Assembly: GCA_020627825.1 (NCBI GenBank)
Contig: JAHDGD010000004.1
Span: 1 to 39,001 of the forward strand
Direction of reading: 5' to 3'
Source: Saprospiraceae bacterium
GTDB taxonomy: Bacteria; Bacteroidota; Bacteroidia; Chitinophagales; Saprospiraceae
DNA length: 39,001 nt
Shown piece after piece: positions 46 to 35,886 of the stretch. Below the pieces are notes generated by a model that saw nothing but the letters and a program-made list of their open reading frames with translations, was not told the DNA's origin and did no database searches. Every line of letters begins with the position of its first letter. Position 1 is the first letter of the stretch. The position numbers were made by a program, and so were the translations under genes.

Positions 46-786
46 TTACAAACTCATAAAACTTGCTCTTTTTCCGCAAACAGATTTTGCATATTGTCCC
101 AAACCAAAGTTTAATTCCAAAACAACTTCGAAAAAAGCTGGATTGGTAGTTGCGTATGTATCGTACTCAATAGGACTTGTAAAAGCGGCTGTTTGCGCCC
201 CTTGTTCACTCAAGATGTCATTGATGCCATAGGACAATCTAAATCCTAGATTAGCTGTAAAGGAATCGGCATTAAACATATAATATCCAAACCCCAGGAC
301 CGGGCTTAACATATTATCTACATATAAATCGTCTGCAAGATTTGCTGTACCTCCGTCTATTGTCTGAAGAAAGCGTTGGTATAAGCTGTATTTTACACCC
401 AATTCAACATAATTCAAATTTCTATTGTAACGATACATTCCATAAAAATCTACAGCATTAAAACTAACTTTTCTTTCAGTTAATGGAATCCCGTCATCTA
501 CCAATCCATTGGTTTGAGAAACTGAACTGTATAAAGCATCTACTGTAATTGCATGAAATTGACCAAAGTTAAAACCAAACTTTCCACCAAAACCATAAAC
601 TGAGGCAAAGGCAGGATCAATTGAACGATCATTGATCAAATTATTATTATACAGCATACCAGATCCAGCAGAAACTTTTGCGCCAGCATCCAACCAAAAA
701 TATATTTTTTGGGCTTTAAGCCCAGTAAAACTTGCAGAAAGTAAACATATCGCAAGAAGTAATGATTTTAAATTAAATGTTCTCAT
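46..786 (-). CDS. Outer-membrane beta-barrel-like protein
   Basis: The 246-residue product begins with a clear Sec signal peptide: basic start, hydrophobic LLLAICLLSASFTG, and likely cleavage after GLKAQ. The mature part has alternating aromatic/glycine strands such as GFGGKFGFNFG, YVELGVKYSLY and GLGYYMF-type segments, which suggests a small outer-membrane beta-barrel. No catalytic motif is visible and I do not recognise a named family. The codons at the signal-peptide cleavage region contain one copy of the GGGC...GCCC palindrome (711-723). The gene stands apart from the pyrG set upstream by about 70 bases. The surface location is inferred; the function is unknown. Confidence 0.7.
   Translation of the reverse strand: MRTFNLKSLLLAICLLSASFTGLKAQKIYFWLDAGAKVSAGSGMLYNNNLINDRSIDPAFASVYGFGGKFGFNFGQFHAITVDALYSSVSQTNGLVDDGIPLTERKVSFNAVDFYGMYRYNRNLNYVELGVKYSLYQRFLQTIDGGTANLADDLYVDNMLSPVLGFGYYMFNADSFTANLGFRLSYGINDILSEQGAQTAAFTSPIEYDTYATTNPAFFEVVLELNFGLGQYAKSVCGKRASFMSL
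711..723. repeat. GGGC-type palindrome copy 1
   Basis: GGGCTT-T-AAGCCC is a perfect 6-bp inverted repeat with one central base, preceded by six Ts (705-710). It lies inside the signal-peptide codons of the outer-membrane protein gene. It belongs to the family described in the findings. Confidence 0.6.
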
Positions 787-853
787 TTTAGATATTCTAT
801 TTTAAATATAAAGATAAGCAGAGTCATACATATAATCAAAATAATTAATATGT

Positions 854-1645
854 TTAATTTATTTTTAATGTATCATGTAATTTGATAATGCCTTCCTGCT
901 TGATCGCTGCGTTCATCCCAAATATTACTGCATTTCCACTTTTTCTATACTGTAATAATGCTTTAACAACCTTCTGATGGGATTCTCCTGTGTCTTGATG
1001 AATGTCTATTACTGGGCATCTTTTACATGGTTTTACCATTTTAAAAGATGTTGTTCTAATTTGAAATGTACTTAGTTCGTCTTCTTGATATGGAGCACAA
1101 TCTTCGATTATGATATTTGCTCTAAACTGCCTAAGATCAACTTCTTGCCCCATTCTCAAGGATAAATCTTTGACTGATGACTTAGAGAGAAATAGTATGG
1201 GATAACCATCTGCAAAACTAATTCCAACTTTTTTCCCATTAATCCATCTTTTTCTATTAGCGAAAGTGGCTTGTTTTACTAACCTAACATTATCATTTAA
1301 AAAAGTACTAAACCATTCATTTATTTCCTTTTTTAGAACATGAGCCTCTACAGTAGAATTCCATACTTTAGCCGATGTTAAGTTTGAGGTGATGTCATTT
1401 ATATCATTGATTAATAGTTGATTATGTGGCGTGTCTTTTTGAGTCACTTTAAGCCCATCGATTGTTTGTTCTACAGCAAGTTTCGCCATTGATTTATGGG
1501 ATCTCTGACTGATGAACTTACCATTTTTATCAATCAGCATGAATCTACGATCATGTTCCAATCCACTCTCTAATACTTTTGCTTGTTGAGATTGATATCC
1601 TCCCAATCCTTTAATAGGATACCTCCATATTTCTGCAACTTTCAT
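854..1645 (-). CDS. MOSC domain protein (YcbX/mARC-like)
   Basis: The protein has an N-terminal MOSC beta-barrel domain (KVAEIWRYPIKGLGG, then LEHDRRFMLIDKNGKF) followed by a MOSC core with RQFRANIIIEDCAPYQED and the motif PCKRCPVIDIHQDTG. In mARC and YcbX the cysteine of this last motif is the molybdenum-cofactor ligand, so a Moco-dependent reductase of N-hydroxylated compounds is plausible. The C-terminal 2Fe-2S ferredoxin domain of E. coli YcbX is absent, so another electron donor would be needed. I chose the ATG at 1645 (263 aa) over the upstream ATG at 1696, because homologous sequence begins there and because it forms a TAATG junction with the methyltransferase stop. The substrate is unknown. 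Confidence 0.85.
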   Translation of the reverse strand: MKVAEIWRYPIKGLGGYQSQQAKVLESGLEHDRRFMLIDKNGKFISQRSHKSMAKLAVEQTIDGLKVTQKDTPHNQLLINDINDITSNLTSAKVWNSTVEAHVLKKEINEWFSTFLNDNVRLVKQATFANRKRWINGKKVGISFADGYPILFLSKSSVKDLSLRMGQEVDLRQFRANIIIEDCAPYQEDELSTFQIRTTSFKMVKPCKRCPVIDIHQDTGESHQKVVKALLQYRKSGNAVIFGMNAAIKQEGIIKLHDTLKIN

Positions 1646-2181
1646 TATTGTTGTCTTAAGATTTGACTTAATTCCCATAATACAATACCTGCGCACACCG
1701 AAACATTGAAAGAATGCTTGGTTCCATATTGAGGAATTTCAAGACAAAAGGAACTTTGTTCAATTGCATCTTGACTTACTCCTTTCACTTCATTTCCTAA
1801 AACAATACAGACATGCTTATTCAAATGAGATGTATTAAGTTCTGTTAGAGGAATCGATTGGGTCGTCTGTTCTACAGATATCATGACGGCTTCTGGAATT
1901 GAATTGAGCGCTTCATTAATAGTAGGAAAATATTCCCATTCAACCGATTCTGTTGCTCCTATTGCTGTTTTAAAAATTTCTTTGTGTGGAGGTTGAGCAG
2001 TAATTCCAGATAACAATATCTTTTCTACACCTATGCAATCACAGGTTCTGAAAATGCTTCCTACATTAAGTGCTGAACGAATATCATCAAGAACAACGGT
2101 CACTGGAATTTTTGTGGAAGCTCGATATGTCTCAACATCCATCCTTCCAAGTTCTTCCAAACTGAGTTTCCTGTTTTTCAT
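1645..2181 (-). CDS. SpoU/TrmH-family RNA 2'-O-methyltransferase
   Basis: The 178-residue protein shows the three SPOUT knot motifs in order: motif 1 LDDIRSALNVGSIFRTCD with the conserved Asn and Arg, motif 2 VLGNEVKGVS, and motif 3 EIPQYGTKHSFNVSVCAG. These bind S-adenosylmethionine in the trefoil knot and methylate ribose 2'-OH in tRNA or rRNA. The protein is short and lacks an extra RNA-binding N-terminal domain, so the target RNA cannot be named. The start ATG shares its A with the TAA stop of pyrG, and its own stop overlaps the MOSC start in the same way, which suggests translational coupling. Confidence 0.88.
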   Translation of the reverse strand: MKNRKLSLEELGRMDVETYRASTKIPVTVVLDDIRSALNVGSIFRTCDCIGVEKILLSGITAQPPHKEIFKTAIGATESVEWEYFPTINEALNSIPEAVMISVEQTTQSIPLTELNTSHLNKHVCIVLGNEVKGVSQDAIEQSSFCLEIPQYGTKHSFNVSVCAGIVLWELSQILRQQ

Positions 2182-3821
2182 TAACTCAATTGCATTTTAA
2201 GATCCTTAATGACTTCTTTACGTGTGATTGCAGCTTTTATAAAATGTATGAATATAGGATGCGGATTCTCTACGGTACTTTTAAGTTCAGGATGGAATTG
2301 AACGCCAATAAAGAACGGATGATCTTTCAACTCAATTATTTCTACCAAATCAAATTTGCTATTTATACCGCTCGTAACTAGGCCTGCTGTCCTTAATTTC
2401 TTAAGAAAGTGATTGTTCACTTCATAACGATGTCTATGTCGTTCTGTAATTTCTTCTTTGCCATAAATTTTATGGGCTAAACTCCCTTTTTTGACTTTAC
2501 ATTTATAGGTGCCAAGTCGCATTGTTCCTCCTTTTTCCGTAATCGATTTTTGATCTTCCATCAAGTCAATTACTTTTGATTCAGCAGATTCTTTATACTC
2601 TGCCGACCATGCATCTTCCAAATTAGCAACATTTTGAGCGTATTCTACCACAGCACATTGAAGTCCTAGGCATATACCAAAGAATGGAATGTGATTTTCT
2701 CTTATGTACTGAATTGCTTTTAACTTTCCTAGAATCCCGCGTTCTCCAAATCCTGGTGCGATGAGAACACCATCTAAATCTTTTAATTCTTGTTCAACAT
2801 ACCCATCACTTTGTTCCATTTTTTCTGAATGGATTGGAACGACTGTTACTTTAGTCTCGTTTGCAGCGCCAGCATGAATAAATGATTCGTAAATGGATTT
2901 ATAAGCATCAGGCAACTCATTATATTTTCCTACAAGACCAATTTTTACTTCATGAATAGGGTTTTTTAATCTGCCCAAGAAAGACTTCCATTGTATAAGA
3001 TCAGGTTCGTTGTGATTGTCGATTTCAAGTTTTTCTAAAACTGTTTTATCCAGTTTTTCTCTTTGCATTAGTAAAGGCACATCGTAAATAGTGTCAGCAT
3101 CTTTAGCTTCTATAACAGCTTTTTGCTCAACATTGCAAAATAAAGCAATCTTTTCCCTTATTTCTTTTGTCAAGGTATGTTCGGTTCTGCACACAAGAAT
3201 ATCAGGTTGAATCCCTTGTTGTAGCAATTCTTTAACACTGTGTTGAGTGGGTTTTGTTTTTAATTCTTTTGCTGCTCTTAAGTATGGAATGAGGGTCAAA
3301 TGAATAAAAACGCAATTATTTTTACCTTTTTCCCTTCTTATTTGCCTTATTGCTTCTAGATAGGGTAAAGATTCAATATCACCAGCCGTTCCACCTATTT
3401 CGGTAATTACAATATCATATTCTCCTTGATCACCAAGGAGATACATTCTGCGTTTGATTTCATCTGTAATATGCGGAATTACTTGAACAGTCTTTCCTAG
3501 ATATTCGCCTCTTCTTTCTTTTTGGATAACTGTTTGGTAAATTCGTCCAGTAGTGACATTGTTTGCCTGAGAAGTCGGTGTATTTAAAAAACGTTCATAG
3601 TGTCCTAGATCAAGATCTGTTTCAGCACCATCATCTGTTACATAGCATTCTCCATGTTCATAAGGATTCAGTGTTCCTGGGTCGACATTTATGTATGGGT
3701 CAAATTTTTGGATGGTGACCTTGCAGCCCCTTGCTTGAAGAAGTTTTGCAAGTGAGGCGGCAATAATTCCTTTGCCTAGTGATGAAGTAACTCCTCCCGT
3801 AACGAATATATATTTAGCCAT
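2181..3821 (-). CDS. pyrG: CTP synthase
   Basis: CTP synthase aminates UTP to CTP using glutamine and ATP. The 546-residue protein matches the usual length (E. coli 545). The synthetase domain starts with [16 protein letters not shown] (P-loop) and contains [20 protein letters not shown]. The C-terminal class I glutamine amidotransferase domain has FFGICLGLQ with nucleophile Cys384 and the QFHPE motif with His510 and Glu512. A good Bacteroidota promoter lies upstream (3846-3875), giving a leader of about 20 nt. It is the first gene of a three-gene coupled set. Confidence 0.98.
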
Positions 3822-35769: not shown

Positions 35770-35773
35770 AAGG

Positions 35774-35781
35774 CAAATTTA
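35774..35781 (-). promoter_or_regulatory. -7 box of ppk
   Basis: On the minus strand TAAATTTG matches TAnnTTTG. Initiation about 5-6 nt downstream would fall on the ppk GTG codon itself. There is no TTG at the ideal -33 spacing. Confidence 0.45.
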
Positions 35782-35864
35782 ACAATATCGCTTAAAGATC
35801 ATAATCCATTATTCACGTTTAATACAGAACCTTAAGATTAATTTCGGTTTTTTTGAAGGTCTTT

Positions 35865-35886
35865 TTTTTGGACTTTCGTCCAAAAA
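35865..35886. repeat. GGAC-type palindrome copy 7
   Basis: TTTTT-GGAC-TTTC-GTCC-AAAAA forms a 9-bp stem with a 4-nt loop, in a run of eight Ts. It lies between the divergent ppk and DUF697 genes, so it is not at a transcript end of either. Confidence 0.65.

What the first reader, a model, noticed from the sequence alone, without database searches (positions are those of the whole stretch)
711..35886. Dispersed family of seven short GGRC-n-GYCC palindromes, in genes and between divergent genes
Seven copies share the design T-rich + GGGC (or GGAC) + 4-5 nt + GCCC (or GTCC) + A-rich: 711-723, 3924-3947, 10328-10343, 11288-11299, 22224-22243, 33237-33255, 35865-35886. Five are inside coding sequence and the other two lie between divergent genes, so transcription termination does not explain them. 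The loops are TTTC/GAAA in four copies and TCGA in two. Two copies carry a matching change on both arms (G-C to A-T), which keeps the stem. In 39 kb of AT-rich DNA such long perfect palindromes should be rare. Candidates are a protein-binding site (nucleoid, segregation or methylation factor), an uptake sequence, or a very small mobile palindrome tolerated in genes.
Basis: seen in the sequence. Interest (0 to 1): 0.72.

Follow-up and report, generated by a model that had tools for sequence, protein, structure and literature searches.

The report
Genome-wide family of tiny DNA hairpins
The palindromes in this window belong to a family of very short hairpin-forming DNA sites that is repeated hundreds of times or more, mostly inside genes, in some members of one bacterial family, and they look like a DNA signal that is recognised by its folded shape rather than by its letters.

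Summary
All seven palindromes are real. GGRCNNNNGYCC: 6 in the window, 0.25 expected. GGGCNNNNGCCC: 369 in the genome, 2 for the reversed control. The unit is NNNC-T(T/G)NC-GNNN-AAA, i.e. TTT-NNNC-GNMA-GNNN on the other strand. In a second genus (G104) 18 different stems occur in 91 sites; given the other pairs, the inner pair is Watson-Crick in 91 of 91 and the middle in 91 of 99. G104 has 94 four-bp and 66 three-bp hairpins in 400 kb, 0.6 and 1.8 expected. The core word GCTTTCGCNAAA reaches 100 or more copies in 22 of 258 family genomes, patchily even within genera. Coding copies arise mainly by substitution (55 of 65 alignments ungapped). REP/IS200-type transposases are absent from the genus and from four of six other enriched genomes. 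Sites lie in both orientations, randomly spaced, some between divergent genes. Most likely it is a DNA tag read as a folded single strand, perhaps in DNA exchange or repair (inference). The reader protein is unknown, and pilus-type uptake is not supported.

The parts
711..723 (.). GGGCTTTAAGCCC, class A relative with a 5-nt loop; codes GLKAQK near the N-terminus of the ORF at 46-786, in what looks like a signal peptide (my reading, no predictor run)
3924..3947 (.). class A site TTTTTTGGGCTCGAGCCCAAAAAA between the CTP synthase gene (-) and tRNA-Ser (+)
10328..10342 (+). class B site GGGCTTTCGCCCAAA in the kynureninase gene (same orientation); a GGGC-TTAC-GCCC-AAA hairpin lies 24 bp before the called start of the homologous G002 gene (L155:16488)
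11285..11299 (-). class B site GGGCTTTCGCCCAAA (minus strand) in the kynureninase gene; its 12-letter core is kept at the homologous position in G002 (L155:17451), not in G003
22224..22243 (.). class A site TTTTGGGCTCGAGCCCAAAA in the pterin-binding-enzyme (folP-type) gene; ungapped against G002, which has no palindrome there, and G003, which has a different perfect one (GGGGT-GG-ACCCC-AAAA)
33238..33252 (-). class B site GGACTTTCGTCCAAA (minus strand) in the same adenylosuccinate lyase gene; ungapped against G002, where the sequence has no such hairpin
35870..35884 (+). class B site GGACTTTCGTCCAAA between the divergent polyphosphate kinase gene (-) and DUF697 gene (+)

Best explanation
The palindromes are copies of a short DNA hairpin signal spread over the chromosome. 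On one strand it reads, in its best-studied form (G104), 5'-C-W-TTT-[stem of 3 to 4 pairs closed by C:G]-G-N-(A/C)-A-[stem]-3'. Shown here, in the genomes whose stretches I held: the pairing is constrained while the stem letters can vary; the loop and the TTT/AAA foot are constrained; copies lie in both orientations, in genes and between genes, randomly spaced where tested (G104); they arise mainly by substitution; the core word is abundant in some family members and at control level in close relatives. Inferred: the signal works as a folded single DNA strand read by a protein that sees shape, loop and foot. The likeliest setting is DNA exchange or recombination (imported, resected or donor single strands of either polarity), where tagged DNA is recognised as self and preferentially kept, so that the sites spread by selection or biased exchange as uptake sequences do. 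The reader protein is not identified. Class A of the own genome is read as a symmetric form in which both strands carry the TTT-hairpin (inference).
For: Genome-wide excess: 369 against 2; G104 94+66 hairpins against 0.6+1.8 expected in 400 kb, G046 22+33 against 2.2+1.6, G000 61+20+105 against 2.8+1.2+0 in 813 kb (G000 and G003 stretches were partly chosen for holding sites). Shape, not letters: in G104, of 146 CTTNCG followed by AAA at the foot 73 have all three outer pairs intact, against 13 of 561 without AAA; 18 stems in 91 sites; all four pair types at the middle and inner pairs; inner pair 91 of 91 Watson-Crick, middle 91 of 99 with 5 other, 2 A-C, 1 G-T. The lack of wobble points to DNA. 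Loops followed by AAA in G104 are mainly c(GNAA)g or c(GNCA)g, which fits stable DNA tetraloops of the cGNNAg kind (recalled). Orientation and place: 42 plus and 40 minus on 220 kb, spacing CV 1.00; intergenic sites between divergent genes 6 of 12 in G104, 3 of 12 in G000, 0 of 5 in G003/G002; tandem intergenic 7 same, 10 opposite. Not insertions: 55 of 65 ungapped. Retained in genus: 5 of 18 query-subject pairs (3 distinct site pairs) against 0.3-0.5% of random windows, one with altered letters and perfect pairing, plus a further such case in folP that the filter missed. Patchy within genera. No excess in viral contigs: 64 against 71 for the reversed pattern.
Against: No reader protein was found, and nothing shows folding in the cell. 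Wobble: G046 has 3 G-T of 15 at the inner pair and G000 2 of 66, so the strict pairing is clear in G104 but not proven everywhere. ComEC is in 35 of 36 genomes, enriched or not; the one without is an enriched one, G243. No pilus motor was found. In coding sequence the GGGC-TTNC orientation is favoured about 2.7-fold (G104) and 3.6-fold (G000) over the other, which a strand-neutral DNA signal does not predict by itself; I attribute it to a cost of the other orientation in mRNA or protein (inference). Sites sit in spots somewhat richer in gaps than random ones (8 of 65 with a gap in the homologue, 12% against 3.8%). Class A has another loop, of 4 or 5 letters, and may be a separate element.
Confidence: 0.5

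Rival explanations
1. A duplex DNA binding site for a dimeric chromosome-organising protein (Noc-, MatP- or ParB-like), spread through genes.
For: Palindromic, hundreds of copies, inside genes, stem mostly GGGC in the own genome.
Against: In G104 91 sites have 18 different stems that still pair; each half of a duplex site would be free to vary on its own. Spacing is random in G104. Loop length varies in class A.
Confidence: 0.17
2. A mutational product: hairpin-templated replication or repair errors that perfect short inverted repeats with a favoured loop, without function.
For: Copies arise mostly without length change, both strands are affected, and stems vary in G104.
Against: The AAA foot and the T(T/G)NC loop are almost fixed, other loops are much less enriched in G104, close relatives lack the excess, and some sites are retained with compensating letters.
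Confidence: 0.13
3. An RNA hairpin that binds a regulator or affects transcript end, decay or translation.
For: Coding copies favour one orientation; many class A intergenic copies lie just after a stop codon; 3 G-T of 15 at the inner pair in G046.
Against: Practically no wobble in G104; both orientations occur in genes and in tandem intergenic regions, and 9 of 29 intergenic class B sites lie between divergent genes; AAA, not a U-run, follows the stem.
Confidence: 0.12
4. Small mobile palindromes of the REP/RAYT or IS200/IS605 kind.
For: A tag (TTT) next to a hairpin resembles the GTAG-tagged REP that TnpAREP binds as folded single strand (passages of PMC8266576). 8 of 65 alignments have a gap in the homologue.
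Against: No Y1_Tnp in 4 of 4 genus genomes, nor in G104, G046, G155 and G334; it occurs in G193 (partial match), G115 and 7 of 13 further family genomes chosen as low (two of those 13, G014 and G047, later showed a moderate excess of GCTTTCGCNAAA). 55 of 65 alignments are ungapped.
Confidence: 0.04

Closest known systems
DNA uptake sequences (Neisseriaceae DUS, Pasteurellaceae USS)
   Same: Many copies, both orientations, in genes and between them; taxon-specific dialects (recalled for DUS).
   Different: Known uptake sequences are short conserved words (passages of PMC1852404); here the stem can vary but must pair (G104). No pilus motor match covering the family was found.
REP elements and TnpAREP (RAYT)
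   Same: A short tag next to a hairpin; strand-specific recognition of folded single-stranded DNA (passages of PMC8266576).
   Different: REPs are 20-40 bp, mainly downstream of genes though some lie inside them, tagged GTAG or CGTC (abstract of PMC3733652); here about 12-24 bp, mainly intragenic, TTT foot, no Y1 transposase in the own genus and in four of six other enriched genomes.
Chi-type recombination signals
   Same: About one copy per few kb, intragenic, chromosomal (recalled for Chi).
   Different: Linear words, often strand-biased to replication (recalled); here a hairpin with 42:40 strands on 220 kb of G104.
Noc binding sites and matS
   Same: Palindromes dispersed in genes (recalled).
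   Different: Fewer copies, fixed letters, duplex-bound (recalled).

Membership tests
DNA uptake sequence | Large excess over chance in the chromosome, both strands, in genes | tested here: met
DNA uptake sequence | A fixed linear word | tested here: not met
   18 stems in 91 G104 sites, paired
DNA uptake sequence | Type IV pilus-type uptake machine | tested here: not met
   PF00437: partial weak matches in 22 of 23 genomes (3 over the cut-off), none covering the family
DNA uptake sequence | ComEC channel present, and lost where sites are lost | tested here: inconclusive
   PF03772 in 35 of 36 genomes, enriched or not
DNA uptake sequence | Preferential uptake of tagged DNA | not testable with these tools
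   needs culture
REP element mobilised by RAYT / IS200-IS605 | Y1 tyrosine transposase in the genome | tested here: not met
   0 of 4 genus genomes; 0 in G104, G046, G155, G334; present in G193 (partial) and G115
REP element mobilised by RAYT / IS200-IS605 | Copies present as insertions | tested here: not met
   55 of 65 alignments ungapped, 8 with a gap in the homologue, 2 in the query
Intrinsic terminator | Stem followed by a U-run, downstream of genes | tested here: not met
   AAA follows the stem; most copies intragenic, 9 of 29 intergenic class B sites between divergent genes
Dimeric duplex-binding site (Noc, MatP, ParB) | Fixed half-site letters | tested here: not met
   all four pair types at the middle and inner pairs in G104; in G000 the stem is mostly GGGC
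Dimeric duplex-binding site (Noc, MatP, ParB) | Bias to origin or terminus | not tested
   only part of draft genomes was held
Chi-type signal | Arrest of RecBCD/AddAB in one orientation | not testable with these tools
   needs biochemistry

The most novel reading that the evidence does not exclude
A new class of chromosomal signal: a non-mobile DNA hairpin code, up to a thousand copies or more per genome, in which a dedicated protein recognises a folded single strand (TTT foot, 3 to 4 paired but freely chosen letters, GNMA loop) and so tells self DNA from foreign DNA during exchange or repair. The signal spreads by overwriting letters inside genes.
Probability: 0.35. Interest if true: 0.93.

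Novelty: new variant of a known kind. Interest (0 to 1): 0.76.

Why it matters
To my knowledge (recalled), known genome-wide DNA signals inside genes are linear words, and signals read as folded single strands belong to mobile elements. A non-mobile, intragenic, shape-coded signal would join the two. It changes protein sequence where it lands. The gain and loss between close relatives gives a direct way to find the protein by comparing gene content.

Tried and rejected
REP/RAYT and IS200/IS605: rejected for the own genus and for G104, G046, G155 and G334. Insertion of a small palindrome: not the main route. Terminators: AAA, not T, follows the stem. RNA element: almost no wobble in G104, though G046 has 3 G-T of 15. 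Replication-strand signal: 42 plus to 40 minus in G104. Regular spacing: CV 1.00. A dedicated gene beside clusters of sites: the ORFs printed beside clusters share no evident gene by eye; no family search was run on them. Type IV pilus: no PF00437 match covering the family. ComEC as discriminator: not informative. Rfam: only tRNA-Ser in the window. Retention between G104 and its relative G193: the one query (20 kb) gave only short matches, so it was dropped. Viral contigs: no excess, 64 against 71, no contig with two (the loci were not read). RNA and DNA folding energies of the two strands did not discriminate. Literature: searches returned no paper; some searches listed only unrelated ones; led to the REP and uptake-signal papers cited (abstract and outline of PMC3733652; passages of PMC8266576, PMC1852404 and PMC5217627, the last mentioning no Bacteroidetes). 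I found no description of such sites in these eight searches of open-licence papers.

Weak points: the contigs of G000 and most stretches of G003 were chosen because they hold sites, so densities per Mb there are too high; whole-genome counts are not affected. Pairing was examined only in G000, G002, G003, G104 and G046; for the other genomes only fixed words were counted. Gene calls are home-made longest ORFs. The one search count holds only sites inside called ORFs with a homologue of at least 35% identity in the stretches held, away from alignment ends; its hairpin filter missed at least one different palindrome (folP in G003). Low genomes were chosen; later showed a moderate excess in two of them (G014, G047).
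Full report
Observation. The window has 6 GGRCNNNNGYCC against 0.25 in shuffles, and another member of the family lies at 32541-32555. The window's assembly (G000, 4.46 Mb, 297 contigs) holds 428 such sites against 63 for the reversed pattern, and 369 GGGCNNNNGCCC against 2. The three other genus genomes have 184, 82 and 81 against 2, 3 and 3; among the 36 other relatives searched none comes near this (largest ratio with at least 20 sites: G016, 28 against 5). 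The nearest named relatives of the window's CTP synthase (74% identity) are a Saprospiraceae MAG and a Bacteroidetes MAG; that the unnamed family f1 is Saprospiraceae is inferred from this.

Anatomy. Class B is GGRC-TTNC-GYCC followed by AAA. The AAA, not asked for, is present in 45 of 45 such sites of the G000 stretches, 20 of 22 in G003, 5 of 6 in G002, 15 of 17 in G104. Where the third letter is A, the partner is T: in G000 38 G/C, 7 A/T, no mismatched combination. Class A, frequent in the G000 stretches (105) and rare in the others (8 in G003, 0 or 1 elsewhere), is TTTTGGG-centre-CCCAAAA with centres such as CTCGAG, CTTTAAG, TTGAA.

The letters of the stem can vary. In G104, another genus of the same family with 46% G+C, the sites are mainly KSSC-T(T/G)NC-GSSM-AAA-W-G, with 18 different stems in 91 sites. 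Among 146 CTTNCG followed by AAA at the right distance, 73 have all three outer pairs intact and 61 miss one; without AAA the figures are 13 and 91 of 561. All four Watson-Crick pairs occur at the middle and inner positions. Given the other two pairs, the inner pair is Watson-Crick in 91 of 91 and the middle pair in 91 of 99 (5 other, 2 A-C, 1 G-T); the outer pair is relaxed. In the other sets the inner pair is 59 of 66 in G000 (2 G-T), 32 of 35 in G003+G002 (0 G-T) and 12 of 15 in G046 (3 G-T); the middle pair is 59 of 62, 32 of 36 and 12 of 17. In 4-bp stems of G104 the AAA starts directly after the stem in 65 of 75. G046 carries a version with a 3-bp stem: AAA directly after the stem in 33 of 104. 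This is what a hairpin requirement predicts. The near lack of wobble in G104 argues for DNA over RNA; the G-T cases in G046 count against it. The loop on the TTT strand, mainly c(GNAA)g or c(GNCA)g, fits stable DNA tetraloops (recalled).

Amount. Against third-order Markov sequences: G104 94 four-bp and 66 three-bp hairpins (0.6 and 1.8 expected) in 400 kb; G046 22 and 33 (2.2 and 1.6) in 400 kb; G003 29, 11 and 8 class A (2.0, 1.8, 0) in 383 kb; G000 61, 20 and 105 class A (2.8, 1.2, 0) in 813 kb. Extrapolation gives about 1,600 for G104 (inference). Eighty Bacteroidota loci of named contigs, 1.51 Mb, hold 12, 16 and 2 against 8.0, 8.3 and 2.7 in second-order Markov sequences, near chance.

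Distribution. GGGCTTNCGCCCAAA occurs in 84 of 398 family genomes; high counts are in the own genus (150, 148, 75 and 51 on both strands), in G104 (129) and in G193 (84), with G155 next (23) and controls of 0 in these. The core word GCTTTCGCNAAA reaches 100 or more copies in 22 of 258 family genomes, up to 953, with reversed controls of at most 16 there; the own genome has 36 against 1. Many other genera are at control level, and genera g42, g4 and g22 contain both states (for example G148 456, G265 3). In 395 genomes of the phylum, CTTTCGNNNAAA exceeds twice its control at more than 100 copies only in G000 (256 against 109) and G046 (308 against 65); a few others, such as G782 and G776, show a milder excess. 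Viral contigs show no excess: 64 against 71.

Place and direction. On 220 contiguous kb of G104 there are 82 sites, 42 plus and 40 minus, mean spacing 2.58 kb, CV 1.00. In coding sequence the TTNC orientation is favoured when set against unpaired CTKNCG in the same orientation: G104 52 sites to 388 unpaired words, against 26 to 522 in the other orientation; G000 31 to 360 against 12 to 502; this holds in all three reading phases of both. In G003 and G002 the sums agree (17 to 375 against 9 to 444) but not every phase. In tandem intergenic regions there is no such bias (7 same, 10 opposite), and 6 of 12 intergenic sites in G104, 3 of 12 in G000 and 0 of 5 in G003/G002 lie between divergent genes. 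I read the coding bias as a cost of the other orientation in mRNA or protein; this is inference and counts against a purely strand-neutral signal.

Origin of copies. Of 65 alignments of site-bearing proteins with homologues, 55 are ungapped at the site (85%; 93% at random positions), 8 have a gap in the homologue (12%; 3.8% at random) and 2 in the query. Examples: folP-type KVLGSSPKES against KLLDIEPAEA (G002) and KVLGGGPQKA (G003); purB-type NGLSSKSEA against DHLKEKATE. Within the genus 5 of 18 query-subject pairs keep a hairpin by my filter (3 distinct site pairs), where 0.3-0.5% of random 33-nt windows would. One pair has GGGCTCGAGCCC in G003 and GGGTTGAACCC in G000, both perfect palindromes. 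The filter missed a like case: in the folP-type gene G000 has GGGCT-CG-AGCCC-AAAA and G003 GGGGT-GG-ACCCC-AAAA at the homologous place. Between genera, none of 21 pairs from G104 to others keeps one, and 1 of 4 from G000 to G104 does, in a conserved peptide.

Candidates tested. No Y1 transposase in the genus or in G104, G046, G155 and G334; it is found in G193 (partial match), in G115 and in 7 of 13 further genomes. No PF00437 match that covers the family in 23 genomes, only weak partial ones in 22, three of them over the cut-off. ComEC in 35 of 36, without relation to the sites; the one without, G243, is enriched. Clusters of sites share no evident neighbouring gene.

Reading. The facts fit a chromosomal signal that acts as a folded single DNA strand, is kept or spread by selection or biased exchange, and is gained and lost as a system. 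Which protein reads it, and whether the purpose is DNA exchange, repair or defence, is not shown. It works in distribution like an uptake sequence but fails that family's linear-word and pilus features. It resembles REP elements in being a tagged hairpin but fails mobility and, in the own genus and four of six other enriched genomes, the transposase. I therefore file it as a new variant of the known kind 'genome-wide dispersed DNA signal', and state the bolder reading separately.

Noticed in passing
window 711; L001:9299, L006:4744, L010:5001, L019:4689: Several sites sit near the start of genes and code A-x-A-Q or similar, like the cleavage region of a signal peptide (my reading); the hairpin letters seem to have settled where the protein tolerates them.
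   Followed up: partly
window 13471-13500: A 13-pair hairpin AAAGGACTTTGGTACATACCAAAGTCCTTT with a T-rich tail (minus strand) between ORFs, a terminator-like site unlike the family.
   Followed up: no
L005:3536, L006:4542, L013:12504, L130:2209, L134:14914 and others: Many intergenic class A palindromes of G000 lie 6-50 bp after a stop codon, so they may have gained a 3'-end role.
   Followed up: partly
L007:9119-9349, L128:3512-3776: Three sites within about 260 bp in one intergenic region, classes A and B mixed.
   Followed up: partly
family genomes (g42, g4, g22): Sister genomes differ up to more than a hundredfold in the count of the core word (G148 456, G265 3), which suits a search for the responsible gene.
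   Followed up: no
G782, G564, G478 (f20 g142) and G776 (f48 g288): Mild excess of CTTTCGNNNAAA (about 1.5 to 2-fold) outside the family; may be a weaker or different version.
   Followed up: no
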